Of a stretch of DNA of 64,000 bases, positions 11,804-60,895 are shown piece after piece. This DNA is from a virus. How positions within the stretch are numbered: the stretch's first letter is position 1; every line of letters begins with the position of its first letter. The notes beneath the pieces were generated by a model. It was not told the origin of the DNA and did no database searches. It saw nothing but the letters and a program-made list of their open reading frames with translations. The stretch spans positions 44,771-108,770 of IMG/VR virus record IMGVR_UViG_3300027763_000038. One strand, written 5' to 3'. Made by a program: the position numbers and the translations under genes.

Positions 11804-11831
11804 TTGATATCCTTGTATTCTTAAAACTAAA

Positions 11832-13439: not shown

Positions 13440-13474
13440 AATAATAAATGTCCTTTCCCTAAACAAACTTAAAA

Positions 13475-29800: not shown

Positions 29801-32800
29801 TGTGTTCGTCTAGCTCCAGCACCAGCCCTAACTTCTGCTTCTACTTCTTCATCTGTTAATGTTCCAGCTGCTGTTGCTGCTGCTCTAGCAGTTACTGTTA
29901 ATCTTTCAAGCTCTTCGTCCACCATGCTCAATGCTTCTTGTATCTGTCTGCCATTAACATTGCCTAGTTGTTGTCTTATTCTAACTTCATTACGAGCTTC
30001 TTGCTGAGATTGCTGTAATGCTCTTTGTAGATCATATAATACTGTGGCACTAGCTCCAGCTGCTCTGGCCATTAATATATCAGCATTATAAGCTCTTTCT
30101 GCTTCTGCTGCTGTGGCCTGATATCCTCTTCTTAATAATTGACCAGAACGTGATGATGCTACTCCAAGTTCTGATAATACTTCAGCTAGTTCAGAAAGTC
30201 TTTGTGCTGTATTTCCACTAACTCCTATAGTTTCTGTATTGACCGTATTTGGTCGTGCTGCTGGACCAGCCCTACCACCAAAAAATAGTCTTTGTACAGC
30301 ACCTCCTGTGGCAAATTCTTGGACTCCTCCTACTAATCCACCACTATTAAATCCAGATACTTTATCTGCATGGTTTAGTCTATTAAGAGTTGGTGTTCCT
30401 ATTCTACTGGCAGTCTTTTTATTAATAACAAACTCGCCAGGAGTTAATAGTGCAGGAACAGTGGTGTTTATAGAGCCTCCAGCAGCCTTCCTGTTTAATG
30501 AACTTAGTTTATTTGCTCCGATAGTTTGTACTGCTTTTTTACGAATAACAAAGTCACCAACATTCAAATTAGCAGGAACCGTGTCTTGACTGCCAACTCC
30601 AGGAACTAATCCACCATCGGCGTATCCTCTAGCTTTAAGATAATTACCAATTTGACCTTTTAGTTCAGCAGGGCCGTTGAGTGTTAGTTTAGCATCAGTG
30701 GGGATATTTGGTGGAAGTTTGAAGTATTTAGAAGCATCCTTAAGACCGTCTGGGAAGTCGATACCATAATTAGTAGCAGCTTTATTAGCAATTGGTCCAC
30801 CAAGCTGATGTATAATACTTTCAGCTATATATCCATGAGCATTAGCCTCACCCATTTTTTTACGATCAGAAGCCTTGACCTTTTTATTTGCATAATGATA
30901 AACATTCATTCCTGCTGCTCTTGCAGCATCAATATTTCTCTTATCATCATCAATAAAGGCACCTGGGTTAGCCTGCATATATTCAACTTTAAGTTGAGCA
31001 ATTTTTTCAGCAGTATTATCTGGACCACCAACGCCTTCAAGGTTGCGTATTGGAAGATTCTTACTAGCTAACCATTCACCAATCAAACCCATAGTATTTT
31101 TTGGTCTGGCAGAAATCACATGTAAATTATCAAGTAACTGTGGGGTTTTTCTAACTTGAGCAACAAGAGCTAGTCCTAATTTACTAAGTGTAGCATTTTT
31201 TAAAGCATCCCTTACTTTATCTTTATCAGAAAATTCACTAAATCGTGGTTGTTTTGGATCAGCTAAAATTTTGTCAGCACCAAAAGCTAATGTTCTATCA
31301 AAGTCAGAATATATAGGTCCAACTTCTTTCAAAATCTGCCTGATCTGCATATTTTTAGTTGATTTTGCTGAAACAGCGTTCATTGCTTGAGTCATTCTCT
31401 TAATATCTTTTCCAGCAGCTTCTTTATCTAGAACGCCACTAGTAATTCTAACCTTAACTGGATTTTTTAATCCCGGAATTTCCATTCTATCAGTTGTGGG
31501 AAAAGCTCTTCCTTTGAATCCAGCGGCCCCAAACAAAAGACCATCTGTAGTTGCTTTTTGTATATCAAGATTATTTGCTTTTTTAATACCAGAAGTTTTC
31601 TCTGTATATTTTGCTAAAATTTTATCTTTGATAACTTGTTCTGATGGAGTTAATGAATTTCTTTTCTTTAATATTCTTTGTATATCACCAGCATTTGATC
31701 CAGTGTCTTTAATAACTTCATCTAGAGTAAGAACTCTGAATATATCTGTAGAAGTAGCAGCTTTACCTGATGTTGGTGTTACAATACCAGCATCAACAAA
31801 TTTACGAACTGAACCACCACTGTTAAATCCTGGTACTTTATTTTTTTGTTGCGTTTGTATCCAGCTATAAAACTTATCTTTTTGATTAGCTTCCCAAAAA
31901 TAATCTAGATTACCTAAGAAAACATTAGGATCTTTATCTTTTTTATTATTCTCTTTAAATAATCCATTTTTACTTCCTGCAAATCCAACCTGATTTTTAT
32001 CAATTCTATATCTCAACATTTTACTAACCAAATCGATATCTTCAGTATCACTAGTTTTGAACTTAGCCTCACCAATTTTTTGTATAGCCTGATTTTCAGC
32101 TTTTTGAATTAGATCAACAGGATAATTAGTTTTATTACTAGCTGATTCCCAACCCTGTTTTAATTTAGAGATTATTAAAGTTTCATATGCTTTTCCCCAA
32201 CGATTTTCTGCGCTTCCTAGTTTACCTACCTCAGTTTCTTTCTCTGACACCGCCCTTTTTCTGTTCTTTTGATTTTTAGAAGATTGGATAATATCATCAA
32301 GCTTTGCTCTGTTCTCTCCGCTAACATCGACACCAGCATAGCTTTTATATCTTTTAGAGGTTGAGGCTTTTTCTGATGCCATATCCCAAATCTTTTTAAA
32401 GTCCGCAGGCTTTAAATCTATTGATCTTGGGACTATTCTAATTTTTGCTGAGTCCCCAACTGCTTCTATATTAGTTTTTCCAATAGCTTTCTGGATTGTG
32501 GATGATCCATCTCTTGTTAGCAATTGATCAATAGTATAAGACTGAGTCAATCCACCATTACTAAATTTTTGTATTCTACCACCATTTGCTTTATTAAGCC
32601 TATGAAGATTGTGAGCACCAATAGCTTTAACAGCACTTTTACGGATAACAAATTCACCAGGAGTTAATCTTGCAGCAATACTATCAGAATCTCCTTGACC
32701 GGGTACCAAACCACCAGTAGCAAATCCTGGGGCATTATTTCTTCTGCCTCCTCCAGTAAAACCTCTACCAAAACCACTAGCAAATTGGGTAATAGCTGAA

Positions 32801-44965: not shown

Positions 44966-47900
44966 TTATGGTTGTTGAGTTAAGTTTACTGTTACTGTAT
45001 CGGAACCAGTATCATCATATGCTCTGATATTAAGAACCTGTAGACCTCTCCAGTTATAATTTACACTATTAGTACTAGACAAAGTAATAGTTAATCTATC
45101 TGTAGTGCTATTATAGTTATCATTCATTTTAGAGGTATTGAGGGATCTGGAGAAAATACACATACTATTATTAACTAAAATTTCTGGAGTATTATTATAA
45201 ACAGGCCTGAGTCCTCCTTCAATTTCAAAACTAAAATTCCATGATCCATTAATATTAGTAACACCAGAATCAATAACAGACTGAGGAAGAATAATTTTAA
45301 GTGGTTTATTTATGTAAACAGGATACTCTACCATGTATTTTTTAGGAGTCAAAGAAGTACCAGAGAATGCTGGTAAGCCACTATTCTCTAAAGAAAAAAT
45401 CTTATATTTATAGTCTTTATAGAGACCTGTTGGAGTACCACTCAAACCAAATTTCCATTCTCCTTTTTGAGAGAAAGTAATATTGTTAAGTTTAATTTGA
45501 TCGTAATAATTTTGTTTGATATCATAAAAATCTGTATTATTTAATGGTCCAAAAGCGAATGTATCAGGTCCGTTAAAAGATGCCCTTAAAGAACTACTAT
45601 CTCCAGATACTATAGAGATTCTGTAGTTAGAGAGTATTATATTATTTTCAGTAGAAATTGAAGCGCCATCTGTTATGTCTATATAATCTCCTGTCTTGTA
45701 AGGAATACCATTATGATGTATTAATAATGATGTCACTCCAGCTGATTGGTCTATTGATTGAATATAGCATTTATCATATACTGTTACTGTTCCAACTGTT
45801 GAAATACCATTATATTGATATGGCAGTGTCATTGTGCTACTATAACTGTCATTTAAAATTATACCAGTATTAAATGATATATAATCTCCACTAAAATTAA
45901 CTAAAACAGAATCGTTGGGTTTAAATATGTTAGTAGCATTAGCTGGTAAAGAAATATTAATTTTTTGGTTTGTTGTTCCACCAAAGAATCCGGAATGTTG
46001 ATATGTTCCAATTAATATTTTTTCATTAAGTTTTTTCTGTAATACACCAGTAAATAATGGACGATAATCAGCTAAGTCCCAAATAGTACCATCTGATAGC
46101 TGATAAAATGGAACTCTTTGGCTACCTCCACTAAATGGAACATAACCACCCAATGCTCTAACAGAATATCCTGATATTGGCTGTCCACTCATGCAGCTGA
46201 TACTATTTTTGATACCTGTAATGAGGATCGGAGGGAAGCTTGATTGGGTTGGGTTATCATCTCTATTTCCTCCTTTGTGGATCCAAAAATATTCATTTTC
46301 TGCATAAGGAATAGCATTATATTTATAAGTTGGAAATTTATCAGATGGCTTATCGATAAATAGAGATAAAACAGTTCCGGAATTAAAAACATAATTGAAT
46401 TGAATAGGACTACCACCAGCGGTCCCAGCAGCAGAAGTAGAAGTAGAACCACTGTTTAACGGAGTTCCTGAGATACAATGTTTAATAAGGTAATTAATAG
46501 ATACTAATCTATAGTTTTCTGTTAAGTCTTTTTCATATTGAGAAATACCATACGCACACTTGCTTAAAAGAGCATATGCCTGATTATTATATGAGAAAGG
46601 AACATTATCACCACCCTGTGCTGGTGGAGGAGCAAATAATTCTATAGATGGTCTTGGAACACTTATTCCGCTAATTCTAAGATATCCTGTTTCCCAACAA
46701 TTAGAAGTTTTCATTGTATACACAGAAGGAAAAGTAGAGTATTCTGATATTGTAGAAACATTAAGCCCAGTTAAAAAGATATCATCATTTCTAAAAGAAC
46801 CAGATACTGGTATTGAGGCAGAAAACGATGGCCTCATTCTTCCAAATAAGCCATAGTTTGTGGGGTCATTTATGCTTTTAAGTTTAATTATACCACAGCC
46901 TAGTATGGATTTAGTACTAGTAGAATCTACTGTACCCTTAAAATTATTGAGATTTGATGTATTTATTGATTTTATAGCAGATTGAACAAATCTACCGGAA
47001 CCAACACCGAAAGTATGTCCAGTAACTGCTATATATTTAACACTTGGGTTTCCACTCTGTTTGACTATGTATGTGCCATTAAAACCATTAGTATTTAAAG
47101 TATCATTATTAAATTCAACATATACTAGACTACCAACAGTATTAGTTAATTTTGTATTGGTAATATTATCAATATAGACATTATAATTTCCTGCTGCAAA
47201 ATTTCCTCCACTATAACGGAATGAGGATGTTTGACATTCGGAATGAGGCAAAATACTAGTACATGTCAAAGCATCAGAGATAGCTGGTGGCCAATAATTT
47301 TGCTGTCCATTTGCATCTATTGGATTTGTACCAGATGGTTGTTGAACAGAATTTATATCATTGCCCCTCTCTGTATATGCTGGTTTAGTCCCATCAAAAT
47401 AAACTGTTAAATTAATAGGAGAAGCAGGATTAGCTGTAGAAATATCTGTAAACTTTATTTCTTTAGTAGCAGACTTATTTCTTGCATCAAAAACTTTGAA
47501 AGTAAAAATATCTGGATATGAAGTACCACTAGCAAATGTTAAAGGTTCTCCATAGATTCTTAAAGTTCCAGTACTCATATTATTCCAGGGGGAGCTTGGA
47601 GTACCTCCAGGAAATGATATAGTATAATTAAGACCTAAAGGTAAAGAACCACTAACAGTCCAACCCGACATTCCGGTAGGTTCTGGACATTGTGCTCTTG
47701 TATTAGTATAAAATTGCCAATAATTATTAATTGGTGCCTGACCGCACAATGGAGATAATTCAATAGTGTCTGATGAACCAGGCATTGTTCTAATACTCGG
47801 TCCAGGATGACCGATACCCTGATCTATCAATGTTGTGTATTTTATTATAGCTTGTTTTTTATCTGAACTCAAATATAAATTTTGAGTAGTATCAGTATCA

Positions 47901-50900
47901 ATAGCAGTAATAAGAATTTGTTTATTTCCTGAAATATTACATAGAGGTAGTCCACTAAAACTAAATAACCACTTTTTCTTATTAGCATTCCAGGATCTAC
48001 CAATAAAACATGCTGCTTGATTTTCTATTGGAATTTTTGGATTATATCCGGAACAGGAAGAAGGAAAGCCAGACAAAAGAATAGTTGGAGGATAATTAGG
48101 ATTTTCTAAACCGCCAATAGTAGCAAAAGATACCTCCCAAGGAAAACCCTCTCTTGCAGGATAGAATGGTTCTGTAACATCTACAATTTGAAATGGTACT
48201 GTATCTCCTCCGATACTAGATAGATAAGAAGAATCTAATTCTACTAAATTAAGTTTGCCTACTCCATAAATTTTATCTGTAGCAATACCTTTACATTTTA
48301 CTAATAACTGAGAATAGCTATTATCTCCTAATGAAGTATTTTGATTAGTAACATCAAGAGAAACATCCCATTTAGCAGTCATCGGGGATCCAGAATAAGC
48401 GTACTCCCATGTTGATAAATCTTTATCGTACTTAGTATATGGTCTTGTTAATTGAATTGTATTCTCTGTTAGTGGCGAAGCAGCGATTGTAACTCCGGGA
48501 GGTTGTTCTGGTGGAGGTAAAGCTTGTTTAATATCTAGATTAGATTGATAACTATTATTAGGTGTTGCATAAATAATAGATCTAATATTATCTAGATATT
48601 GTTCTTTTGTAAAAAATAATCTTATTGTATTTGTATTACTGGAGAATCCGTCTTCAGCGTAAACTAAAATATCTTTATATCCTAATTCTTCTGTTGCTTT
48701 ACCAAAAACATCTTTTTTACCATCTACAAATACTGACCATGAATGATTAATTTCATCATATTTTGTAAATAAAACATACTCTAGGGGCTGTGATAAATAG
48801 TTTCCTAAAGTTGGTAAATTAGATAACCTTACCCTAGGAGGAAGGTCATTACGATGAGACCCTACTCCATTCTGTACTTTAAACTGTAAAGCCCATAATT
48901 CTTGAGGATCATAAACTAGAGGTTCTATAAGTTCTGATTTATTAACTACTATTTTTTTATATAGAGTTAAATTGAAGGTTTGATTTTTTGTATATCTTAC
49001 CCAGCTAACGCTATCGTCTGGAGCTATTACTGGTTGAGATATTGCAATATTAGTATTAATAGAAGGATAATATCCTACAGAACCACTAATAGATGCATTT
49101 ACTCTATATCTTTGAGAAGCAGTACTATATTCCACAATAGAACTAATAGACAAAGCCTGAGTATTAGTAGTAAAAGTAACAACAGGCTCACTTAGAGAAT
49201 CATAAAAAGCTGGAACAAAGAATGAAAAAGAAACTACATCACTAGGATTAGTAATATCTATATAAATATCATTATCAAGTCCCTGTGGATTAATAGAGTA
49301 GGCTGGCTTAGATTGGGTATTATCTAAAACTACTACGGTTCCGCTTTGTGATGTTAAAATTTCAGAAGTTATAAAATCTCTTATAGTCAATACAGGATTA
49401 AAGATACCAGTATTAGAACCAGCTGAACCAATGAATACTTTGGTACCAGAAGCATTTGTTAATTCTTCGTTAATCATAGTCGGAGCAGATGCTGGATAAT
49501 CATTTATTGTTAATGAATAGCTCTGACTATCTGTTGGGAGATTTTTAATATCAAATGGTAATATCCAATTTATTGCGCTATTCTTATAAACATAAGTTGT
49601 TCCAGCATATTCCATCTTTGGTAGAACTTTAGTCGTTAAAGATATATTAGTAGAATCCGTTCCACTCTCATCATTTACTGTAATAGTAATTGTTTTATTA
49701 TTCACATATTGTACAATATCTGAGATTAAAACTGGAATTGTCCACTGTTTTGTAGAACTACTATATATTATATTAGCAAAATCTATATCATATGATCCAA
49801 CTCCATAAATATTCACTCGTGGAGCAGATCGGTTCAGGTCATTTGACCACTTCCCTGCACCATTTAATACTGTAAGTTTAAGATAGATTTGATTCTTTGA
49901 GGAAGGAATAGTGATAGAATTATCCGATACAATTCTATATGTTACTTCGTCATTAAACAGATATTCGATTTGAGAAATCTTAAGTAGGTCGGGTGGAAGA
50001 GATATAAGCTGTGTTCCAGCTTGTCCGTAGTGGATAGTGCCGCTGTATCCTCCAAAATTATTAATATCTTTATTGAAGTGTATTAGATGTTTCCATCTGT
50101 GAGACTGATCATTATATGAGTTGATATAATAGTCTACTAAATTATTACTTCCTAAAGAAATATTTCCTTGTGATGTTTCAAAAACATTATTTAAATTAGG
50201 ATTTCTATTAGATTTAATATTGTAGTCACTATCTATGATATAAACTAATCCACTACGACCAAGATAGTCGGAATCGAATGGCATATTAAGAGTAAAAGTA
50301 TCGGAATCTAGTCTGTCAGCTATATAATAGCTACCATTGATTTCTGGGGCATCATCACTAAAATCAAAATAGAATTTCTTATTAACTCCCCAAGGCCTAA
50401 CATAACCACTGCCATTAGAAGTAGTAGCAGTATTAGATTGTTTACCAACATCTTGACGATTAACTATGTCTGGTATATTACGGAATTGATCATCATTATA
50501 TACTGAAATTCTAACACATAAAGTACCAGAGGAACAATTTTGACTACTAACTCCTATGGTATATATTCCTGTTTGTGGAGCAGGAACATTGGTTCCGGAT
50601 GGATCTCTTGGCCAAGATGCTGTAAAACCACCATGAGAGTGATAGTATATATTATTATTAAAGGGGATATTGCAATTACCAGATACAGACCCGATGAATG
50701 AAATATATCCTGTCGGTTGAATTTGTTGATCTAAAGTAAGACCTAAAGGATTTGTAAACCTATATTGATTATACCACTCTGTAGCAAATCTATTAAGTAA
50801 TACATTATTATTCCCGTTAATTCCAATTCCAGAAAAAGCAGTATCTCTTGCATTAGACTGTGTAATTCTAATATTTCTACTTACTCCTGAACCAAAAGAA

Positions 50901-53900
50901 CTATTACCATCATAACTAAGAATAGTTAGTTGGTCATTTGTGTTCAAATAGCTTCTTGGTAATGATAAGCTATCTATGTAGATAGAGTCTCCATTATAAA
51001 AATATGAATTAGTTTTTCTGAGTCCATTATATCCATTATTTATACATGTTTTATTATTGAGAAAAATTTTGGGTTTAATATTAACTACCAAACTAGTTTC
51101 TGTACTATATAGATTTGGTGTGTTATTCTCTAAAATAATAGATTTGTCTGGAACAATATCAGTAGTTTGGATATTTTTTAAGTCAAAAAAGGAATATGTT
51201 GGATATCTCCCAGTTGTATAAATAATTTGGTTACTAGAATTAAGAGATGGTACAATATGAGTAACTGACCCAGATGCTGCTTTGATTTCTAACACGTCTT
51301 GATAATCAACAGGAATATTAATACTAACTGGTATTTTCATTCCAGAAACATAGGGCTTTGTGTTCTCTATTGAAAATGGGTATGGAGGAATACTATTTAA
51401 AATAGATCCACCATGATTAGTAATTACGCTTGCTGGCAATAATGAAGTAGTATTAAAAATAGTAGAGTTATTTAGTTTCATAGTTGCTTGACTAGGGATC
51501 ATAGTCAATGTTTCGCTAGCAGTTCTATCAGCATCTGTAACTACGATTGAAACTGGACTAGTCTGTGTTCCTGTAAATGGCAAATTAAGAGTAATAGAAT
51601 CTGAGGTTAAACTTTGTACAGTAGACTCTGGATTCCATCCAGGAGTAGTAGAATACAGCCTCATACCAATAGCAATAGAACCAATTGGAGATGGAGAACA
51701 ACCACTAATAATGTATCCACTAGTCTCTGTAAAGCCACTAATAGAAATTGAAGGACCAAAGTTAATGGTTTTAGGATAGGAACCTACTCCGCTAACAGTA
51801 TAAAAATAACAATATCCAGACAGACTTAAAAATCCATCATTACAACCACTAACAATATAATTTTTAGTATAGTCTGTGCCAGTATTTGGAGTAGAAGATG
51901 CAGAAAAATCATAAGATAGTTGTGGAGCTTCAAAAGTTATTTTATCTAATGCTACAGATCTTAATGTTGGATTAATAATATGACCAACTATAGTAGATCC
52001 ATTACTATTAATTAAAGAATTACTAGAATATAAATTAACTCCAGAAAAAATTTGTGTTTCCCATAAAGATTCTCCACAATATTTTGCAATATTTGATCCA
52101 GGAACAATTTTAACTCCAAAACTAAAAGGTTCGTCTATTCGTATTATAGAAATTGGAAATATATGACTAGAGTTATATGATAAAGATGAATTAGTTCCTA
52201 TAACACTATTTTTCTTTAAATAAGATGTTATATCTGATTTATTAATATTGAATATGCGATTATAATTATGAAATATTGTACCACTAAAATTAAATGAATT
52301 AAGAATAGTGTATTTACCTTGAATAGGTTTTTCAAAATATTTTGGTTGATTAATCTCTGTCAATAGATAGTTTTGAGAATCTTTTACAGAAATCTGATTT
52401 CCACTAATAGATAAAATATCAAATAGATTATTTTTTGGTATTCTATTTGCATTATTGAATGGGGCATCTACAAATTTAATAGGTACCTGATTTAGAATTT
52501 TGGGGTCTAATATTTGAAAACCATGATTTCTATCAATATTTAATAATACTGTACCATTAGAATTAAGTCCCTTATCCGGATACCAGTAAGAATTTTGTAT
52601 CTCAAATCCAGTATTTGTCAATTCACTAATCTTTTTATAGTTATCATCTAGAGGAATAGATCCTGTATTAGAACTAATAAAATTTAGATAAGCGCTAGAT
52701 TCATTTGGTTCTAAATAAAGATTTTCTGGTAAATTGATAGAAATTTGACTTGTGCCTGTATTAGAATAAAAATAAACAACTCCAGTTAAATAATATCCAG
52801 CAGATAATGTATATTGATTTGTTTGTGTTGAAAAACCATGAATATAAGATCTAGTAGTATCAGCAGGGCAATAACCAGATTTTTCTGTAACCGAAGAATA
52901 TTGTAGACCTGAAGGATAATAATTTCCGCTATTGGGTATTGTTCCGCTATATGTAACTATAGTGTCATGAATTCCACTCTTAGTAAAAGGAACATCTAAA
53001 ATAAAGCTTCTACCAATAGTAGAAATAGATATTGGGATCGGACTAGTCTGTGTTCCTGTGAATGGTAAATTTATAGTGATAGAATTTGCAGTCAAGCTTT
53101 CTACGCGAGAATTTGGATTCCATCCAGAAAGACTACAATATAATTTCATTCCAGAAAAAATAGAACCAATTGGAGATGGTGAACATCCGCTAATAACATA
53201 TCCGCTATACTCAGTAAAACCATTAATATTAATAGGTTCTACAACACCAGAAATATTAGCAGATGTTAGTCCGGTATGAGAGGTATAGATAGTTAAACCA
53301 GTGACCAGTGTGTATGGTGTTCCGTAAACTGAAACACTTTGTGAGGAAGTAGTATTAGAATAGGTTTTATAAAATGGATTACACTCACTTATAACATTAC
53401 TTCCACTAACTAAAACACCACTAAAACTATTGGAAGCTGTAGAAAATTCTAAATAAGGAGAATATCCTCCCGGAGTAGAAAGTTTCCCAATAATAGTTCC
53501 AATTGATGAATTTTCTTGAATAGTTGAATTAGATAGTATTATCGAATCACTGATATTAGTTCTAGTAATTGTTGGAGCTGCTGTTGTGGTAGTTGTAGTA
53601 GTTACAGTGTCAGTTAAATCTAGAACATTAATAATAAATGATTTCTCTAAAATTCTACCAGACATATCTGTGCTTCTTACCCTGATTTTATAAGAAGATT
53701 TACTTTCATAATCAAAAGACTGCATATTTATTAGATAGTCATTTTGTATACTAAAATTCCCATTATCATCACTACCTTCTCCGCATACCAGAGAATAAGA
53801 GAATGGAGTAGAGGGTAATTCTATAGCTTCTAAATTTTTATCGAATAATGAAATTTTACTAGATCCATTAGCTGATGTATATTGAGTATATATTCCCTCA

Positions 53901-56900
53901 TATCTATTAAAAACAGTTGGAAATCTATTGTATGTTGCGGTATAGTTTCTTCTGGGAACTAGTGTGAGCGTACCAGAATTTGTGCTAGCAGGGGTAATCG
54001 TGGCTTGCTGTCCACTAAAATTAGCAGTTAATCCACTAACAACAACGCCCACAGTTGGACGGCCACAATAAGTAGTATCAATACTTCCACTAATGCTATC
54101 TACTGAGTCAAATCCATATGTTCCTAATCCAAATTGAACGGTGGGGCTACTGTCAAATGTATATCGACTATGATTAGTGGTTTGACAGAATCCTAGGCTA
54201 TAAATAGAAAAACCATCAAAAACCCCTGTGAAATTTGGAGTGAATGTAATTATATTGTTATCTACACTAGTAACTTTACCTGTCTGAGCCAAACTAGAAG
54301 GGTAATTATTCTGATCTGGTCCAAAGGTAATCAACATTCCTGAATAGATAGAACCTACTGGATTAGTAGTTGTATAAGATAATGTATTTCCACCAGTATA
54401 AATATTTCCAGATATTCTAATAGAACCAACCCGATCTGTTTCTTCAACATCTCTAGGATCTAAAACAAAAAATTTGTCAGTAAGAAAATAACCTCTCCAC
54501 GAATGCTCTGCTACTGTAAAATTATGTTTATCTATTATGCTCAAAACTGTATATGGTTTAGTTAACGGTTTACGGATACTACCAACCAACATATTTAAAT
54601 TAACCGCACAGCCAGTTACTAGAGCATGGTTGTATGACCTTACAAATAAATTTGGATTTCCATCATTTTGAGAAAACCAACCATTAGATAAAGGCTTTTT
54701 TAAATTTAGAACAACATTGCCGGAATTTGTTTTTATATAGTTGCCTTCCAAATTTAGGTATTCTGGAGTATACTTATACAAGGATTCGGTATTCTGAGCT
54801 AAGACTGGTAATGATTGTAGTGGGGGTCCACCAACTTTTACATTTTGTATCTGTACATCATTGTCTAATTTATAATGAAAGTAGTGTGTTCGTTGCTGAG
54901 AATCATTATAGATTTCTTGTTTTGTGGTGTCTTTTAGAACAGAAGTTACGTTAAGAATTGAAGTAATATTATTTGGGTCTCTATAAGTACTATTTTTAAT
55001 AATTCCACTAGAAAAAGAAAATAAAGCAGCTCCTGTTCCGGCGGCTTTATTTAATAGAACCTCAAGACTATAAGCTACTGTTTTATTCTTAGGTATGGAT
55101 ATAGAAGGACTCATAGTATAATATGAGCCATTAGTCTCTGTACCATTAAGATACAAAGCAATAGTCGAAAATTGCCCTTGTGCAGACGCATTGTTAGTTG
55201 AGTCTGTTTCTGAGAATGCTCCAAAACTAAACTGGTTATTTGCCCATGTGTATCCATAATTACCAGCAGCTATCGACGTTGGTTTTAGTGTTTTTGATCC
55301 AACATTGAAAGCAATACTATTATTCCCAGAAACAATATTATTACTACCTACCGCCAACCCATTATCAGCATAAATTTTATTATTCAATCCTACAGCAAGA
55401 GACCTATTAGCATCATTTAATCCTGTATTTGTAGAACCAATAGCAACATTAGCATCAGATGTAACCTGAATAACATTACCAGTCTGACGGATATATGAAT
55501 TACTAATAGTACGACTAGGATCACTAGTTCTTTCATCAAATCTAGGGATATATCCTAAGTCTCCCTCTAAACTATTAAATTCTACTTTGTGATAGTCAAA
55601 TAGTCCTGTCATATTAAATGCATCTGTATAATATGTTCCAGGTTTGCCATGTAATAGGTCTGCATTTAAATTTACTACCATATTGGTATTACTACCAACA
55701 TTTAATGGAGGGTCACTTTGTCCAAAGCTAGGAATTATTGATACTTGACCATTTACAGTTATTCCATCAGCAAAACGCTTCACCCCACTAACTACTTGAG
55801 GATCAAGTCTACTAATATAGATATTATCAGCTACTCCTCTAAACAAAACAATATTAGGATCACCAAGTAAATTACTCATTAAATAGACAGAATTTTGATC
55901 TCCACCATTTATGTCTTCTCTAAATGCTGAACCTGCACCACCACCATCCAAACTAGATGGGTCTGCTGTAATATTAGTAACTAACCTTAATTCTTTTTCT
56001 GCCGGATAATAAGCTAAAATACCAGTTCTTTGAGCAGCACCACCATAAATAAAACTAAATCCTCGTGGCTCGCTTGGTAAAATAGAGGCAGAATTTGTTC
56101 CGAAGACCGGTATATTATCTTTTACTGTTAAATTATTTCCATCAAGATTAACATCTCCATTTATAGTAACAGGACCATAAATAGTGTCTCCAGAAATCGA
56201 CACTGGACGATATCCTAGTGCCTGAACAATGTCGTTGTACGTATTATCTTGTCCATTAATAACTATACCACGATCATTAACTTGAACCTTAGTATATGTT
56301 CCAGCAGTAGCTTGGATTGGTAGATTACTATTGCCAATAGTTCCAGTATGAGTACTTAAATCCAAAAAAACAGAAGAACTAAAACCATCTAATAGATCAG
56401 CATCAAGACCAGATCCAGAACCATCGTTACCTCGATGCCAAGGAGTATATCCTAATATAGCTAATATATCAGCAGAGCTAAGGTTTCCACCAGAAACTAC
56501 TCTTCCCTTTGAATCTGTAGTAACTTTACTATAAGTTCCAGGAACACCAGTAGAAGATAACGAAACTATATCACTAGTAACTAGAATATCCTCTGATCCA
56601 TTGATATTGAGAACTACCGACCCATTTGGTAAGGTCAGATCTCCTCCTCCAGTAAGACCAGATCCTGCTACTATATCGATCTTTGTTCCGCTAAGAAGTA
56701 TGGTTCCTGTATTGAGTGGAAATGATGAGATCTTAATACCATCGTAATATAATAGTCTATTACCAGCAAAGGTTGAATTATTAGTTCCACCCTTACTGAT
56801 TGGTACCATACCTTCGATAACACCCAAATCTAAATCCGAAAGACGAGCAATAGTACCATCTACTGCAATTTGATTAGACTCATTAATAAATAAGCCTTCT

Positions 56901-57331
56901 CCAGTATTTATTCCAAGAGTAATAGTTTTGTCTGAACTATTTCTATATAATCCAGAACCATTAATAACTCCAGTAACAGAAGCATTTGATCCAGCAGCAT
57001 CTAAAATATTTTGAATACTATAATTAGAACTAGATAACTTATTTCCATCATAGTAAATAATATTACCACTAGAGAAAGTGGTATTATTGGTGCCTCCACT
57101 AGAAATAGGCAATTTATCAAATATTAAACCATCTTTTCCAGGTTCTCCTTTTGGTCCAGCCGGTCCTGTGTCGCCCGGAGGACCTCTCTCAATAGCAAGA
57201 AGATTTATTTTATTTAGTCTGTTGTCTGATATAACTATATTAGTAGTAATAACAGTTTCTGGATCTACTTCTTGTGTTACAACCAGATATTTAAGTGGCT
57301 GGATTTCTTCTTCTACTCTGACTATGCTCAT
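44966..57331 (-). CDS. Giant 4,121-residue fibre/adhesin with collagen-like start
   Basis: The N-terminal 50 residues resemble those of the collagen-like fibre downstream, followed by a short collagen run (50-68, GPPGDTGPAGPKGEPG). Next come fibre-shaft modules: two ISxGGTNN repeats, LDADLLDG near residue 308 and a YadA-like stretch near 630-670. From about residue 1150 the chain is a long series of beta-sandwich repeats of Ig/cadherin flavour (for example ENSSIGTIIGKLS near 1275), with a Thr-run linker near 1245. A module containing SGCSPSPIGSI occurs at about 1365-1430 and 1863-1928, with a weaker third copy near 990-1045. There is no signal peptide or membrane anchor. The ATG overlaps the preceding stop (ATGA). 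The likely role is a long, flexible host-binding appendage. Confidence 0.8.
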   Translation of the reverse strand: MSIVRVEEEIQPLKYLVVTQEVDPETVITTNIVISDNRLNKINLLAIERGPPGDTGPAGPKGEPGKDGLIFDKLPISSGGTNNTTFSSGNIIYYDGNKLSSSNYSIQNILDAAGSNASVTGVINGSGLYRNSSDKTITLGINTGEGLFINESNQIAVDGTIARLSDLDLGVIEGMVPISKGGTNNSTFAGNRLLYYDGIKISSFPLNTGTILLSGTKIDIVAGSGLTGGGDLTLPNGSVVLNINGSEDILVTSDIVSLSSTGVPGTYSKVTTDSKGRVVSGGNLSSADILAILGYTPWHRGNDGSGSGLDADLLDGFSSSVFLDLSTHTGTIGNSNLPIQATAGTYTKVQVNDRGIVINGQDNTYNDIVQALGYRPVSISGDTIYGPVTINGDVNLDGNNLTVKDNIPVFGTNSASILPSEPRGFSFIYGGAAQRTGILAYYPAEKELRLVTNITADPSSLDGGGAGSAFREDINGGDQNSVYLMSNLLGDPNIVLFRGVADNIYISRLDPQVVSGVKRFADGITVNGQVSIIPSFGQSDPPLNVGSNTNMVVNLNADLLHGKPGTYYTDAFNMTGLFDYHKVEFNSLEGDLGYIPRFDERTSDPSRTISNSYIRQTGNVIQVTSDANVAIGSTNTGLNDANRSLAVGLNNKIYADNGLAVGSNNIVSGNNSIAFNVGSKTLKPTSIAAGNYGYTWANNQFSFGAFSETDSTNNASAQGQFSTIALYLNGTETNGSYYTMSPSISIPKNKTVAYSLEVLLNKAAGTGAALFSFSSGIIKNSTYRDPNNITSILNVTSVLKDTTKQEIYNDSQQRTHYFHYKLDNDVQIQNVKVGGPPLQSLPVLAQNTESLYKYTPEYLNLEGNYIKTNSGNVVLNLKKPLSNGWFSQNDGNPNLFVRSYNHALVTGCAVNLNMLVGSIRKPLTKPYTVLSIIDKHNFTVAEHSWRGYFLTDKFFVLDPRDVEETDRVGSIRISGNIYTGGNTLSYTTTNPVGSIYSGMLITFGPDQNNYPSSLAQTGKVTSVDNNIITFTPNFTGVFDGFSIYSLGFCQTTNHSRYTFDSSPTVQFGLGTYGFDSVDSISGSIDTTYCGRPTVGVVVSGLTANFSGQQATITPASTNSGTLTLVPRRNYTATYNRFPTVFNRYEGIYTQYTSANGSSKISLFDKNLEAIELPSTPFSYSLVCGEGSDDNGNFSIQNDYLINMQSFDYESKSSYKIRVRSTDMSGRILEKSFIINVLDLTDTVTTTTTTTAAPTITRTNISDSIILSNSTIQENSSIGTIIGKLSTPGGYSPYLEFSTASNSFSGVLVSGSNVISECNPFYKTYSNTTSSQSVSVYGTPYTLVTGLTIYTSHTGLTSANISGVVEPININGFTEYSGYVISGCSPSPIGSIFSGMKLYCSLSGWNPNSRVESLTANSITINLPFTGTQTSPIPISISTIGRSFILDVPFTKSGIHDTIVTYSGTIPNSGNYYPSGLQYSSVTEKSGYCPADTTRSYIHGFSTQTNQYTLSAGYYLTGVVYFYSNTGTSQISINLPENLYLEPNESSAYLNFISSNTGSIPLDDNYKKISELTNTGFEIQNSYWYPDKGLNSNGTVLLNIDRNHGFQILDPKILNQVPIKFVDAPFNNANRIPKNNLFDILSISGNQISVKDSQNYLLTEINQPKYFEKPIQGKYTILNSFNFSGTIFHNYNRIFNINKSDITSYLKKNSVIGTNSSLSYNSSHIFPISIIRIDEPFSFGVKIVPGSNIAKYCGESLWETQIFSGVNLYSSNSLINSNGSTIVGHIINPTLRSVALDKITFEAPQLSYDFSASSTPNTGTDYTKNYIVSGCNDGFLSLSGYCYFYTVSGVGSYPKTINFGPSISISGFTETSGYIISGCSPSPIGSIAIGMRLYSTTPGWNPESTVQSLTSDSITLNLPFTGTQTSPVSIVVTDADRTASETLTMIPSQATMKLNNSTIFNTTSLLPASVITNHGGSILNSIPPYPFSIENTKPYVSGMKIPVSINIPVDYQDVLEIKAASGSVTHIVPSLNSSNQIIYTTGRYPTYSFFDLKNIQTTDIVPDKSIILENNTPNLYSTETSLVVNIKPKIFLNNKTCINNGYNGLRKTNSYFYNGDSIYIDSLSLPRSYLNTNDQLTILSYDGNSSFGSGVSRNIRITQSNARDTAFSGIGINGNNNVLLNRFATEWYNQYRFTNPLGLTLDQQIQPTGYISFIGSVSGNCNIPFNNNIYYHSHGGFTASWPRDPSGTNVPAPQTGIYTIGVSSQNCSSGTLCVRISVYNDDQFRNIPDIVNRQDVGKQSNTATTSNGSGYVRPWGVNKKFYFDFSDDAPEINGSYYIADRLDSDTFTLNMPFDSDYLGRSGLVYIIDSDYNIKSNRNPNLNNVFETSQGNISLGSNNLVDYYINSYNDQSHRWKHLIHFNKDINNFGGYSGTIHYGQAGTQLISLPPDLLKISQIEYLFNDEVTYRIVSDNSITIPSSKNQIYLKLTVLNGAGKWSNDLNRSAPRVNIYGVGSYDIDFANIIYSSSTKQWTIPVLISDIVQYVNNKTITITVNDESGTDSTNISLTTKVLPKMEYAGTTYVYKNSAINWILPFDIKNLPTDSQSYSLTINDYPASAPTMINEELTNASGTKVFIGSAGSNTGIFNPVLTIRDFITSEILTSQSGTVVVLDNTQSKPAYSINPQGLDNDIYIDITNPSDVVSFSFFVPAFYDSLSEPVVTFTTNTQALSISSIVEYSTASQRYRVNASISGSVGYYPSINTNIAISQPVIAPDDSVSWVRYTKNQTFNLTLYKKIVVNKSELIEPLVYDPQELWALQFKVQNGVGSHRNDLPPRVRLSNLPTLGNYLSQPLEYVLFTKYDEINHSWSVFVDGKKDVFGKATEELGYKDILVYAEDGFSSNTNTIRLFFTKEQYLDNIRSIIYATPNNSYQSNLDIKQALPPPEQPPGVTIAASPLTENTIQLTRPYTKYDKDLSTWEYAYSGSPMTAKWDVSLDVTNQNTSLGDNSYSQLLVKCKGIATDKIYGVGKLNLVELDSSYLSSIGGDTVPFQIVDVTEPFYPAREGFPWEVSFATIGGLENPNYPPTILLSGFPSSCSGYNPKIPIENQAACFIGRSWNANKKKWLFSFSGLPLCNISGNKQILITAIDTDTTQNLYLSSDKKQAIIKYTTLIDQGIGHPGPSIRTMPGSSDTIELSPLCGQAPINNYWQFYTNTRAQCPEPTGMSGWTVSGSLPLGLNYTISFPGGTPSSPWNNMSTGTLRIYGEPLTFASGTSYPDIFTFKVFDARNKSATKEIKFTDISTANPASPINLTVYFDGTKPAYTERGNDINSVQQPSGTNPIDANGQQNYWPPAISDALTCTSILPHSECQTSSFRYSGGNFAAGNYNVYIDNITNTKLTNTVGSLVYVEFNNDTLNTNGFNGTYIVKQSGNPSVKYIAVTGHTFGVGSGRFVQSAIKSINTSNLNNFKGTVDSTSTKSILGCGIIKLKSINDPTNYGLFGRMRPSFSASIPVSGSFRNDDIFLTGLNVSTISEYSTFPSVYTMKTSNCWETGYLRISGISVPRPSIELFAPPPAQGGDNVPFSYNNQAYALLSKCAYGISQYEKDLTENYRLVSINYLIKHCISGTPLNSGSTSTSAAGTAGGSPIQFNYVFNSGTVLSLFIDKPSDKFPTYKYNAIPYAENEYFWIHKGGNRDDNPTQSSFPPILITGIKNSISCMSGQPISGYSVRALGGYVPFSGGSQRVPFYQLSDGTIWDLADYRPLFTGVLQKKLNEKILIGTYQHSGFFGGTTNQKINISLPANATNIFKPNDSVLVNFSGDYISFNTGIILNDSYSSTMTLPYQYNGISTVGTVTVYDKCYIQSIDQSAGVTSLLIHHNGIPYKTGDYIDITDGASISTENNIILSNYRISIVSGDSSSLRASFNGPDTFAFGPLNNTDFYDIKQNYYDQIKLNNITFSQKGEWKFGLSGTPTGLYKDYKYKIFSLENSGLPAFSGTSLTPKKYMVEYPVYINKPLKIILPQSVIDSGVTNINGSWNFSFEIEGGLRPVYNNTPEILVNNSMCIFSRSLNTSKMNDNYNSTTDRLTITLSSTNSVNYNWRGLQVLNIRAYDDTGSDTVTVNLTQQP
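51548..51745 (-). repeat. Internal duplication in the giant fibre gene, copy B
   Basis: Encodes SGYIISGCSPSPIGSI through LPFTGTQTSP. It is closely related to the segment at 53040-53240 and shares with it an identical 20-nt stretch (ggactagtctgtgttcctgt on the plus strand). Confidence 0.85.
53040..53240 (-). repeat. Internal duplication in the giant fibre gene, copy A
   Basis: Encodes SGYVISGCSPSPIGSI through LPFTGTQTSP, the partner of 51548-51745. A diverged third copy (PVGSIYSGM to FTGVFDGFSI) lies at about 54200-54370, so the gene has grown by module duplication. Confidence 0.85.
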
Positions 57332-57783: not shown

Positions 57784-58299
57784 TCATGAATAAAAATATC
57801 TTGAACGATAAGTATTGCCCTGCAAGTATCTCGGGTTGAACTTGTTGCCAACAAATGGACTAAGCACCGCAGTAACAGCACTAGCATCTCGTACATTCCA
57901 ATTAAGAACTAAGTCCTGATATAAAGCACATGGTCCGGTCTCTAATAAGAGCTTTAATCCTTCTAAACTGCCTTGTACACTCAAGCTAGCTGGTCCAAGA
58001 GAAGCTCTAATACCTTCAGTTGCTGATTTAGTTCTAACTGTACTTTGATCAATAATACAAGCGCTTTTCAAAGCAACCAAACCGATAAATACATCGTCGT
58101 GATAATCAAGAGGATCTGGAGTTAATGTACCATTAGATACATCCACAGTATATTGATTGTCTAGAGTAACCTCAAATTGGACATATTTTGATGCAACAGT
58201 TATTACCTGGATCAGTCTTTCGTCGCTATAAACTGGCTGATCTGTAAGATCATTAATCAATGTGCGAACAATAAGAGGTATTTCAATAGACCAGCTCAT
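57784..58299 (-). CDS. Head-tail connector / adaptor-like protein
   Basis: The 171-residue product (MSWSIEIPLIVRTLINDL) is helical. Its landmarks YSDERLIQVITVASKYVQFEV and DDVFIGLVALKSACIIDQS agree with the gp6/gp15-type adaptors that join portal and neck. AAGGATCAAATT precedes the ATG. It is the first minus-strand gene after the divergent control region, so transcription of the block down to the tail may begin here. The family assignment is from remembered pattern only. Confidence 0.6.
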   Translation of the reverse strand: MSWSIEIPLIVRTLINDLTDQPVYSDERLIQVITVASKYVQFEVTLDNQYTVDVSNGTLTPDPLDYHDDVFIGLVALKSACIIDQSTVRTKSATEGIRASLGPASLSVQGSLEGLKLLLETGPCALYQDLVLNWNVRDASAVTAVLSPFVGNKFNPRYLQGNTYRSRYFYS

Positions 58300-58485
58300 A
58301 ATTTGATCCTTTTATGTGTATTAGGGCTATTCTTTAATACACCTTATGGTAAAGACTGTGGTTTTTAAAATTAATTGGCTAATAGCTAATCCTGTAAGAT
58401 TTCCTACTTATAATATACACCAGAGAACATTAGTCAATCATACTGAAGATAAGGGTGTATTTGGAAGATAGGACATAGGATTAAA
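58300..58485. promoter_or_regulatory. Divergent intergenic control region with four GTGTAT motifs
   Basis: This 186-bp gap separates the minus-strand adaptor gene from the plus-strand glycosyltransferase gene. It holds four GTGTAT copies: plus at 58316 and 58455, minus at 58342 and 58421. A TATAAT box lies on the plus strand at 58409-58414, about 70 nt before the glycosyltransferase ATG, but no good -35 hexamer sits at the usual spacing. Promoters for both directions are expected here. AGGATTAAA is the ribosome site of the plus-strand gene. Confidence 0.55.
58316..58342. repeat. Perfect 8-bp inverted repeat GTGTATTA/TAATACAC
   Basis: GTGTATTA (58316-58323) and TAATACAC (58335-58342) form a perfect inverted repeat with an 11-nt spacer, just before the adaptor gene's ribosome site. 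It could be an operator for a dimeric regulator or an RNA hairpin in the leader. No T-run follows on either strand, so a terminator is unlikely. Confidence 0.6.
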
Positions 58486-59196
58486 ATGATATCATACTGC
58501 TCTCAAATTAAAAATAGATTTTATCAGTTTCAACAAACTTTCTCTCATAATATAAATCATATCAAAAATAATCCAGACACTGAATGGATCATTGTGGATT
58601 GTGATTCAAAAGATGGGCTATATCAGTATATGTCAAAATTTGGAATTTCTGAAAGAGTTCATTATCATAAAACATTAAACTATAAGAACTATTCAATTCC
58701 AGTAGCTAAGAATTTAGCAGCGCGGTTGAGTTCTGGGGATTATGTGTTCAATTTGGATATTGATAACTATATTGGAAATGCCACAAGTCAAATAAAAAGC
58801 CTTGGAACAAAAATTGGCGTGTATTGTAATATTTTCAAGCGTGGAGTTTATGGTAGGATAGGATGTTCTAGGAGAGTTTTTAATATGGTGGGTGGTTATG
58901 ATGAATCTTTTTTACCAGCTGGCAAACACGATATTGATTTTATGGCTAGATGCAAATTAGTTAATTATTACTTTAAACATATTCCCTGTATGATCAACCC
59001 AATTTTAAACTCTAAGATAGAAACCACCCTTAATACCGGTAGTGACATGAATTGGGAAACTATGAATAATCTGAATGGAGAAAAAATGGAATATAATCTA
59101 GAAAATAAAATTTACTGTCCAAATAAAAAATTCACAAGCTGTACTTTTGAATATAATTTTACTAAACAAATTACCTTATCTGAGGAGATAATATAA
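58486..59196 (+). CDS. GT-A fold glycosyltransferase
   Basis: The 236-residue product has the layout of a nucleotide-sugar glycosyltransferase of GT2/GT7 type. The N-terminus has a WIIVDCDSKDG strand with the acidic pair, the divalent-metal motif is at residues 91-93 (LDIDN), and GGYDE (136-140) with HDIDFMAR (148-155) matches the acceptor-side motif of GT7-like enzymes. It has no signal peptide or membrane segment, so it would act in the cytosol. It is the first gene of a plus-strand pair with the alginate lyase (TAATG overlap). Possible targets are virion fibres, such as the collagen-like proteins, or host surface polysaccharide precursors. The target is inference. Confidence 0.8.
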   Translation: MISYCSQIKNRFYQFQQTFSHNINHIKNNPDTEWIIVDCDSKDGLYQYMSKFGISERVHYHKTLNYKNYSIPVAKNLAARLSSGDYVFNLDIDNYIGNATSQIKSLGTKIGVYCNIFKRGVYGRIGCSRRVFNMVGGYDESFLPAGKHDIDFMARCKLVNYYFKHIPCMINPILNSKIETTLNTGSDMNWETMNNLNGEKMEYNLENKIYCPNKKFTSCTFEYNFTKQITLSEEII

Positions 59197-60308
59197 TGCT
59201 ATTAACATTAAATAAGAATAGAATGGACCAACTAGCCCCTGATCAGATAGCATTTTATCAAGGACAATGTGGAGATATTCTCAATGCTCCACTACCAAGT
59301 ATCACACAAAATCCTGCTGAACTAAAACAAAAAACAGGAGCTAATAATTTTACTAGTCTAGCTCCCTTTTATCATCCAGACCCGAACTCTCCAACAGGAT
59401 TTCCTTATATCCGAATTGATGGAACAAGGAACCTTGAGTCTAGAAAAAGTTCTGATAGTCCATACTTAAATTCTATGCTATCTTTAGTGGCTTCAGCATC
59501 TACTTTATATTACTATACTAAGTCAGAAGACTATGCTATTAAAGCTATGGAAGTTCTTTACACTTTCTTTCTTAATGAAAATACTAAAATGAATCCTAGT
59601 ATGACATATAGCGGAATAGTTATTGGAGATAGTATGGATGATCTGCGTATTAGAGGAGCAGTTATTGATAGTAATATATTATCAGTATTACCAGATTTTA
59701 TTGAACTACTTAAACCTAGTCCTCATTGGACAACTGAACTAGATAATGGAATGGTTTCGTGGTTTGACTCATTAAGCGATTGGTTCAAAACTAATCCTAG
59801 AGGAGTCTTGCAAGCTAGTTATAGTCATAATATTAAAACCTCATATATGAAACAGTTATGTTCTTATCTTTGTGCTTGTGGAAAAGAAGTTGAAGCACGA
59901 ACTTATTTGGAAAATAATCTTAGAAGCTTATTAAGTGCTCAGATAGATACTGACGGTAAACAGATATTAGAGATGAACAGAGTAAAAAATAGGCACTATA
60001 GTAATTTTAATTTAACTCTACTTGTAAATCTAGCTACTATAGCTAACTCATTGGGTATTAATGTTTGGAACTATGAGGATAGTGAGGGTAAGGGGAGTAT
60101 TAAGAAGGCTATGAAATATTTAGCCTATTATTATCTTAATCCAACTGAATGGACCACATCTAATGAACAGAATAATTCTGCTATGACACGATCATGGCTA
60201 CAAGCAGGGGTAGAATTATATGATGATCAAATCTTACAAGATGTTTTTAGAGAAGTTAAGATTTATAATTTTACCAGCGTTACAGACTATATTACCTTAC
60301 CCAATTAG
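59196..60308 (+). CDS. Alginate lyase family protein (PL5-like)
   Basis: The 370-residue product matches the (alpha/alpha) alginate lyase family: LAPFYHPDPNSPTGFPYIR (55-73), AIKAMEVLYTFFLNENTKMNP (to 134) and EMNRVKNRHYSNFNL (259-273), which keeps the Arg and Tyr of the active site. These enzymes cleave polymannuronate by beta-elimination. The usual Asn-Asn-His motif is replaced by SHNI at 210-213, so activity is uncertain. There is no signal peptide, so it would act as a virion part or after lysis. TAATG overlap couples it to the glycosyltransferase. Its stop overlaps that of the convergent Gly-rich gene. A role in breaking host exopolysaccharide is likely if it is active. Confidence 0.8.
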   Translation: MLLTLNKNRMDQLAPDQIAFYQGQCGDILNAPLPSITQNPAELKQKTGANNFTSLAPFYHPDPNSPTGFPYIRIDGTRNLESRKSSDSPYLNSMLSLVASASTLYYYTKSEDYAIKAMEVLYTFFLNENTKMNPSMTYSGIVIGDSMDDLRIRGAVIDSNILSVLPDFIELLKPSPHWTTELDNGMVSWFDSLSDWFKTNPRGVLQASYSHNIKTSYMKQLCSYLCACGKEVEARTYLENNLRSLLSAQIDTDGKQILEMNRVKNRHYSNFNLTLLVNLATIANSLGINVWNYEDSEGKGSIKKAMKYLAYYYLNPTEWTTSNEQNNSAMTRSWLQAGVELYDDQILQDVFREVKIYNFTSVTDYITLPN

Positions 60309-60895
60309 GTGAAGTATAATACAATTCCACCGGGAGAACCATTTGTTGCCGAGTTGACATTAGCATTTCCTGCAACGCCCTTAAATCCAGCAGTAAGACT
60401 ACTTCCAGAGAGCGTTATAGCGGCTACTCTTCCTTGAAAATCTAATGTTCCACTAGCATAGAATGTTCTATTAAAATCACCTCCAGAACCAACGCCATTG
60501 TTTCCAAGACCGTTCCCGCCCAGAACATAATTTCCTATTCCTCCTGCTCCTGTTATTGTAACTCCACTATAAGTTAGTGTAGTATTTCCTCCAGAAGTAC
60601 TACTACCATCTCCTTGAAGTCCTGCCGCTCCTACAACATAGGTCACTGTTGCTCCTCCAGTAACGCTATATGTTTTGACCGCTTCTCCGCCATAATAACC
60701 ATCATCTGTTCCTTGACAAGCACTAATATCATATGTTCCACCAGATCCACCACCAATAACCCAAGCCTTCATGCTTGTGGCTCCGGTTGGTACTGATCGA
60801 CTAGTTCCGGTAGTTATAACAAAAGCTACTGGAGTAAAACCACCACCTCCACCTGCCACTATTTTCTTAAACATATTAAATTTAGCACTAAACAT
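60305..60895 (-). CDS. Glycine-rich fibre or adhesin protein
   Basis: The 196-residue product has a polar N-terminus (MFSAKFNMFKKIVAGGGGG), then a Gly-rich domain with WVIGGGSGG, YYGGEAV and many GNG/GAGG turns, ending in GSPGGIVLYF. This matches the glycine-rich domains found at the tips of phage fibres and in their adhesins. The ATG lies six bases after the stop of the Mtd_N fibre gene without a clear ribosome site, so it may be coupled to that gene. It is convergent with the lyase and overlaps it by four bases. A receptor-binding role as partner of the upstream fibre is plausible. Confidence 0.7.
   Translation of the reverse strand: MFSAKFNMFKKIVAGGGGGFTPVAFVITTGTSRSVPTGATSMKAWVIGGGSGGTYDISACQGTDDGYYGGEAVKTYSVTGGATVTYVVGAAGLQGDGSSTSGGNTTLTYSGVTITGAGGIGNYVLGGNGLGNNGVGSGGDFNRTFYASGTLDFQGRVAAITLSGSSLTAGFKGVAGNANVNSATNGSPGGIVLYFT

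What the first reader, a model, noticed from the sequence alone, without database searches (positions are those of the whole stretch)
58486..60308. Plus-strand cassette of glycosyltransferase and alginate lyase inside the structural block
Two coupled enzyme genes run against the surrounding virion genes, divergent from the adaptor and convergent with a fibre gene. This looks like an accessory insertion. One enzyme could modify fibres or host glycans while the other degrades alginate-like exopolysaccharide.
Basis: partly seen in the sequence, partly recalled or inferred. Interest (0 to 1): 0.6.

Follow-up and report, generated by a model that had tools for sequence, protein, structure and literature searches.

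The report
Phage sugar-enzyme pair beside fibre genes
A freshwater virus of bacteria carries a swappable two-gene unit next to its fibre genes, a sugar-adding enzyme plus a protein folded like an alginate-cutting enzyme whose key catalytic histidine is missing, so it more likely modifies the virus's own or the host's sugars than digests alginate slime.

Summary
The two plus-strand genes are real, at the stated coordinates and under purifying selection: a soluble GT2-type glycosyltransferase (58486-59196) overlapping by one base a PL38-fold "alginate lyase" (59196-60308). The pair is shared by 11 viral contigs; 11 of 13 lyase copies have the transferase directly upstream, and none lies next to a bacterial homologue inspected. 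It is an exchangeable cassette: a relative with an identical neck protein lacks it, and in two relatives it is far less diverged than its flanks. The lyase is nearest BoPL38 (TM 0.87), has no signal peptide or virion-anchoring part, and in all 12 full-length phage copies the catalytic N-N-H is H-N-I: the catalytic/neutralising His (BoPL38 H243, AlgL H202) is Ile. Four further conserved positions also changed, while Tyr, Arg, Asn and Asp were kept. Alginate depolymerisation is therefore not the best reading. Most likely the pair builds and edits a glycan in the infected cell, probably on the neighbouring fibres: relatives carry methyltransferase and other glycan-modifying genes there, and cyanophage DSL-LC02 has an analogous opposite-strand cassette between fibre genes. 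Substrate and activity are untested. New variant of a known kind.

The parts
58486..59196 (+). GT: 236-aa soluble GT2-type (GT-A) glycosyltransferase; D91-x-D93 (DXD-like) and H148-D149 invariant in the phage set; no TM-like segment
59196..60308 (+). AL: 370-aa PL38-fold lyase-like protein; catalytic His replaced (H211-N212-I213 in place of N-N-H), Y268, R262, N212, D75 kept; no signal peptide
59194..59198 (+). TAATG stop/start overlap coupling GT and AL (also in the close relatives; 4-base or longer overlaps in L005 copy 2, L017 and L090)
58300..58485 (.). Divergent intergenic region between the 171-aa neck gene and GT; relatives carry here an extra short minus-strand ORF that is missing in the window
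60305..60895 (-). Gly-rich fibre-like 196-aa protein, convergent with AL and overlapping it by 4 bases; stays next to AL in 7 of 8 orthologous loci, including two in which the GT is absent
57784..58299 (-). 171-aa conserved virion (neck-region) gene flanking the site; reference point for the presence/absence test

Best explanation
The pair is an exchangeable glycan build-and-edit cassette of the phage's fibre region. In the infected cell's cytoplasm the GT2 enzyme transfers a sugar to an acceptor, most probably a neighbouring fibre or adhesin protein (or a glycan being built for it). The co-translated PL38-fold partner binds and edits the same uronate-containing glycan, either by a Tyr268/Arg262-driven elimination on a beta-D-uronate-type residue or as a binding/processing factor, rather than digesting alginate outside the cell. 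Shown: gene coupling, family and fold, loss of the catalytic His with retention of the other catalytic residues, purifying selection, cassette exchange, fibre-block location with other glycan-modifying genes. Inferred: acceptor, sugar, cytoplasmic action and chemistry.
For: Pair adjacency in 11 contigs, with stop/start overlap in most. GT catalytic motifs invariant; neither protein has a signal peptide or TM-like segment. AL model pLDDT 91; PL38-type structures TM 0.82-0.87, PL5 about 0.52-0.60. H243 is Ile in 11/11 phage rows against His in 53/54 bacterial rows; W93 and N241 are His in 11/11; Q173 is Gly in 9/11; Y298, R292, N242, D108 kept. H60, Q206, H211, N212, I213, R262, Y268 invariant in 12 phage rows, register confirmed by profile-profile alignment. 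H202A of AlgL had no detectable activity in vitro on polyM (PMC8829089). Context: FkbM/Methyltransf_24 proteins, propeller and sulfotransferase/oxygenase-like genes beside the pair or at the same site in relatives; Synechococcus phage DSL-LC02 has a beta-mannosyltransferase plus two FkbM genes on the opposite strand between fibre and collagen-like genes; L090 has the pair between collagen-like-repeat genes. T/P-rich or collagen-like proteins lie nearby in 10/11 cassette loci against 3/8 cassette-free neck loci (loci related and flanks unequal, so only suggestive).
Against: No acceptor, sugar or activity has been shown. L016/L019 carries the pair next to thymidylate synthase/DHFR genes as well as T/P-rich proteins, so fibre linkage is not exclusive. 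AL occurs without GT in L005 copy 1 and L007. Host-surface (LPS) modification is how fibre-region glycosyltransferases of pelagimyophages have been read (PMC7029224) and is not excluded.
Confidence: 0.5

Rival explanations
1. AL is an exopolysaccharide depolymerase: released at lysis or carried by the virion, it degrades alginate or glucuronan, and the GT is a separate trait.
For: PF05426 9e-51; PL38 fold, with Tyr, Arg, Asn and Asp kept; BoPL38 uses Tyr298 as base on mannuronate (PMC13169297), and AlgL H202A still behaved like wild type in vivo (PMC8829089), so loss of His need not abolish activity. PL38 also holds glucuronan lyases (PMC9029943).
Against: His lost in 12/12 phage copies together with four other conserved positions; no signal peptide while most bacterial homologues have a hydrophobic N-terminus; not fused to a fibre; translationally coupled to a GT without export signal.
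Confidence: 0.17
2. The pair alters the host's surface glycan (superinfection exclusion or serotype conversion), the GT adding and AL trimming a uronate-containing O-chain or capsule precursor.
For: Glycosyltransferases in fibre regions of related T4-like phages are read this way (PMC7029224); the same genome holds a further sugar cluster with UDP-galactopyranose mutase, GT4 and GT90 genes.
Against: No membrane-anchored or flippase-like partner in the cassette; neither protein has a TM-like segment; AL stays with the fibre-like Gly-rich gene even where the GT is missing.
Confidence: 0.2
3. AL is a catalytically dead, glycan-binding pseudoenzyme that presents an acceptor glycan to the GT, or a decoy.
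For: Catalytic His lost in the whole clade while fold and other pocket residues are kept.
Against: Tyr268 and Arg262, the equivalents of the base and its activator, are invariant in all phage and bacterial rows compared, which a mere binder would not need.
Confidence: 0.13

Closest known systems
BoPL38 (PL38 alginate lyase, Bacteroides ovatus CP926; PDB 8bdq, 9fhu and others) and BACOVA_01668 (3nnb/3nfv)
   Same: Fold over nearly the full length (TM 0.82-0.87); Tyr298, Arg292, Asn242, Asp108 and His297 equivalents kept
   Different: His243 is Ile, Asn241 is His, Trp93 is His, Gln173 mostly Gly; no signal peptide; encoded with a GT in phages
PL5 alginate lyase AlgL in the bacterial alginate biosynthesis operon (Alg8 GT2 plus AlgL)
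   Same: A glycosyltransferase paired with a lyase-fold enzyme in one biosynthetic unit (analogy; AlgL role from PMC8829089, Alg8 from general knowledge)
   Different: Alg8 is a membrane synthase and AlgL is periplasmic with a catalytically important His202; here both proteins are soluble without export signals and the His is missing; fold match to PL5 is weaker (TM 0.52-0.60)
Fibre-region glycan cassette of Synechococcus phage DSL-LC02 (beta-mannosyltransferase, FkbM, FkbM)
   Same: Opposite-strand sugar-enzyme cassette embedded between minus-strand fibre and collagen-like genes of a freshwater Kyanoviridae phage; relatives of the beta-mannosyltransferase sit beside the pair in L004, L005 and L017
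   Different: No lyase-fold protein and no GT of this type in the stretch seen
Glycosyltransferases in the hypervariable fibre region of pelagimyophages
   Same: Glycosyltransferases mixed with tail-fibre genes in a hypervariable region (PMC7029224)
   Different: No lyase-fold partner in the passages read; authors infer host O-chain modification
Viral PL6 alginate lyase of estuarine viruses
   Same: Phage-borne gene called alginate lyase (PMC12285232)
   Different: A different lyase family (PL6), read as a degradative auxiliary gene

Membership tests
PL38 polysaccharide lyases | PL38 fold and sequence similarity to BoPL38 | tested here: met
   phmmer 3.5e-30 to 8bdq, 1.2e-41 to 3nfv; Foldseek TM up to 0.87. 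No CAZy/dbCAN model was available for formal assignment.
PL38 polysaccharide lyases | Catalytic Tyr298 with Arg/Asn/Asp pocket | tested here: met
   Y268, R262, N212, D75 invariant in phage rows
PL38 polysaccharide lyases | Catalytic His243 (base for guluronate, anti elimination) | tested here: not met
   Ile213 in 12/12 full-length phage copies; His in 53/54 bacterial rows
PL38 polysaccharide lyases | Beta-elimination of alginate or glucuronan | not testable with these tools
   Needs purified enzyme
PL5 alginate lyases (AlgL type) | N-N-H motif with catalytically important His202/His192 | tested here: not met
   Motif is H-N-I; TM to PL5 structures about 0.52-0.60
GT2 glycosyltransferases | GT-A profile and acidic metal-binding motif | tested here: met
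   PF10111 7.6e-11 above the gathering cut-off; D91-x-D93 and H148-D149 invariant in the phage rows
Phage depolymerases (tailspike or virion-associated) | Fusion to or assembly on the virion | tested here: inconclusive
   Standalone ORF with no fused attachment domain; presence in virions cannot be tested here
Phage virion-glycosylation modules | Glycan on a virion protein dependent on the genes | not testable with these tools
   No isolate; needs glycoproteomics

The most novel reading that the evidence does not exclude
A phage-specific clade of PL38-fold proteins has been rewired (His lost, two new His gained at positions equivalent to BoPL38 W93 and N241) from a secreted degrading lyase into a cytoplasmic partner of a glycosyltransferase that edits a uronate-containing virion-fibre glycan, for instance as a C5-epimerase or a terminal-residue eliminase: a lyase turned glycan-synthesis enzyme in a virus.
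Probability: 0.25. Interest if true: 0.68.

Novelty: new variant of a known kind. Interest (0 to 1): 0.42.

Why it matters
Phage genes called alginate lyase are readily taken as biofilm- or carbon-degrading auxiliary genes. Here the catalytic histidine is gone from the whole phage clade and the gene is tied to a glycosyltransferase in the fibre block, so the annotation is probably misleading and the gene should not be counted as alginate degradation. If the glycan-editing reading holds, it offers a small, testable system for how T4-like freshwater phages decorate and vary their fibres.

Tried and rejected
Chance ORFs: rejected. Decaying insertion: rejected by low dN/dS. Mis-alignment of the H-N-I motif: rejected by an ungapped match in MAFFT, phmmer and hhalign. 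T4-type late promoters: TATAAATA occurs 17 times, 17.3 expected, none at the cassette; sigma-70-like sites are at the shuffle level; a GTGTATTA motif noticed upstream is not enriched (5 found, 4.0 expected). Lyase hits in the phage collection: only an unannotated faecal scaffold and a Salmonella contig filed among phages, in a catabolic cluster; neither is a relative of the pair. Structure of the propeller neighbour failed (pLDDT 42). BFVD fold search gave no significant match. Host assignment: portal nearest to an uncultured 595-kb phage (54%) and Flavobacterium phages (31%); no tRNAs in the rest of the record; host left open.

Full report
Observation. The window is part of a 108,770-base metagenomic virus record. 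Two plus-strand genes lie at 58486-59196 and 59196-60308, overlapping by one base. They are the two longest plus-strand frames in the window and far longer than shuffles allow. The first matches GT2-type glycosyltransferase families (PF10111 7.6e-11), the second PF05426 Alginate_lyase (9e-51). The neighbours run on the minus strand: a 171-aa gene diverges and a Gly-rich 196-aa gene converges with a 4-base overlap.

Distribution. Scans of the viral collection found the pair in 11 contigs counting the window (108316, 76041, 151782, 199884, 204625, 24820, 187644, 28302, 103612 and 34172 bases besides it). Of 13 lyase copies (12 full length, one cut by a contig end), 11 have the GT directly upstream; the exceptions are one of two copies in the 187-kb contig (L005, 10001) and L007. 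In the 28-kb contig (L017) the GT is split into two ORFs. Some of these contigs may be near-copies of one another, so the counts are not independent events. No GT adjacent to a bacterial homologue was found by the GT profile in the bacterial loci fetched.

Accessory nature. With the 171-aa flanking protein as anchor, L064 (100% identical anchor, 92% identical next gene) has fibre genes and no cassette. Other relatives have at the same place a methyltransferase (PF13578) with a weak GT2-like protein (L069, L070, L074) or a GT2 (L072). In L003 and L004 the flanking genes are highly diverged (171-aa gene dS 1.35 or saturated) while GT and AL show dS 0.41-0.61: the cassette moves between backbones. 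NG86 dS near or above 1 is rough. The Gly-rich gene next to AL tends to move with it.

The lyase-like protein. The AlphaFold2 model (38-row alignment) has pLDDT 91. Foldseek ranks Bacteroides ovatus 3nnb/3nfv and BoPL38 first (TM 0.82-0.87), PL5 lyases much lower (0.52-0.60). A maximum-likelihood tree places 11 phage proteins in one clade (100/100), with two freshwater Spartobacteria proteins as sister (100/99) on a long stem; the bacterial sample came from a pattern scan, so the sister is the nearest found, not the nearest existing. Most bacterial homologues carry a hydrophobic N-terminus; the phage ones do not.

Active site. In BoPL38, Tyr298 and His243 abstract H5 for syn and anti elimination (PMC13169297). 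The 55-residue spacing in the 8bdq sequence fits the His of N-N-H and the Tyr of H-Y (counted from the alignment; numbering applied). In the phage proteins Tyr (Y268), Arg (R262), Asn (N212) and Asp (D75) are kept, but His is Ile213 in every full-length copy; Asn241 and Trp93 are His (H211, H60); Gln173 is usually Gly; a conserved Glu is Gln206. hhalign gives the same register. In PL5 AlgL the equivalent H202A had no detectable activity in vitro yet behaved like wild type in vivo, and H192A of A1-III lost most but not all activity (PMC8829089). Weak lyase activity is therefore possible; efficient alginate degradation is doubtful.

Context and mechanism. Beside the pair or at its site in relatives lie a 326-aa protein related to a cyanophage 'beta-mannosyltransferase', a long protein with TPR-like, weak FkbM-like and Methyltransf_24 regions, and sulfotransferase-like and oxygenase-like ORFs (weak or no profile support, my reading). 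Synechococcus phage DSL-LC02 carries the beta-mannosyltransferase plus two FkbM genes on the opposite strand between fibre and collagen-like genes. L090 has GT-AL between genes with collagen-like repeats. T/P-rich or collagen-like proteins occur near 10/11 cassette loci and 3/8 cassette-free ones, suggestive only. The window's genome has another sugar cluster with UDP-galactopyranose mutase. The best reading is a fibre-region glycan build-and-edit cassette; host-surface modification and a degrading enzyme remain rivals. Glycosyltransferases in fibre regions of related phages are known (PMC7029224), so the novelty lies in the rewired lyase-fold partner.

Verdict. Observation confirmed; interpretation partly supported; new variant of a known kind; moderate interest.

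Noticed in passing
L079:11740-16797 (record bases 11740-16797, outside the window): A second sugar cluster in the same virus record: UDP-galactopyranose mutase (PF03275 2.8e-46), GT4-like, GT90-like and weak GT2-like genes; further GT1-type genes in L080.
   Followed up: partly
L017:9998-10708: The GT of this contig is split into two ORFs (105 and 128 aa) while its AL is intact: a broken gene or an assembly error.
   Followed up: no
L005:1190-3012 and 10001-11113: One phage carries two AL copies (about 50% identical) at two sites, one with GT just downstream of the portal gene and one without.
   Followed up: partly
window 58300-58485: A short minus-strand ORF present in L002, L003, L006 and L064 between the neck gene and its upstream neighbour is missing in the window; an inverted repeat GTGTATTA/TAATACAC lies at 58316-58342.
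   Followed up: partly
L007:412-2928 and L017:7498-9996: The portal ORF contains an inserted stretch absent from most phage relatives that looks like an intein (by eye); the alignable portal part in most phages starts downstream of it.
   Followed up: no
L003:7463-8389 and L004:5444-6361: Homologues of the window's 146-aa gene carry an extra C-terminal region, a proprotein-convertase P-domain in L004 (PF01483 1.4e-7).
   Followed up: no
L094:1-1275: A contig classed as viral with portal and capsid-like genes encodes a PF05426-type lyase relative that keeps N-N-H: a contrast to the rewired clade.
   Followed up: no
AGRM01000003.1 (L108): A Salmonella houtenae chromosome contig is filed in the phage collection; its lyase-like gene sits in a uronate-utilisation-like cluster beside a heparinase-like gene.
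   Followed up: yes
window 17842-34293 and 44966-57331: Very large minus-strand ORFs of 5483 and 4121 aa in the virion block.
   Followed up: no
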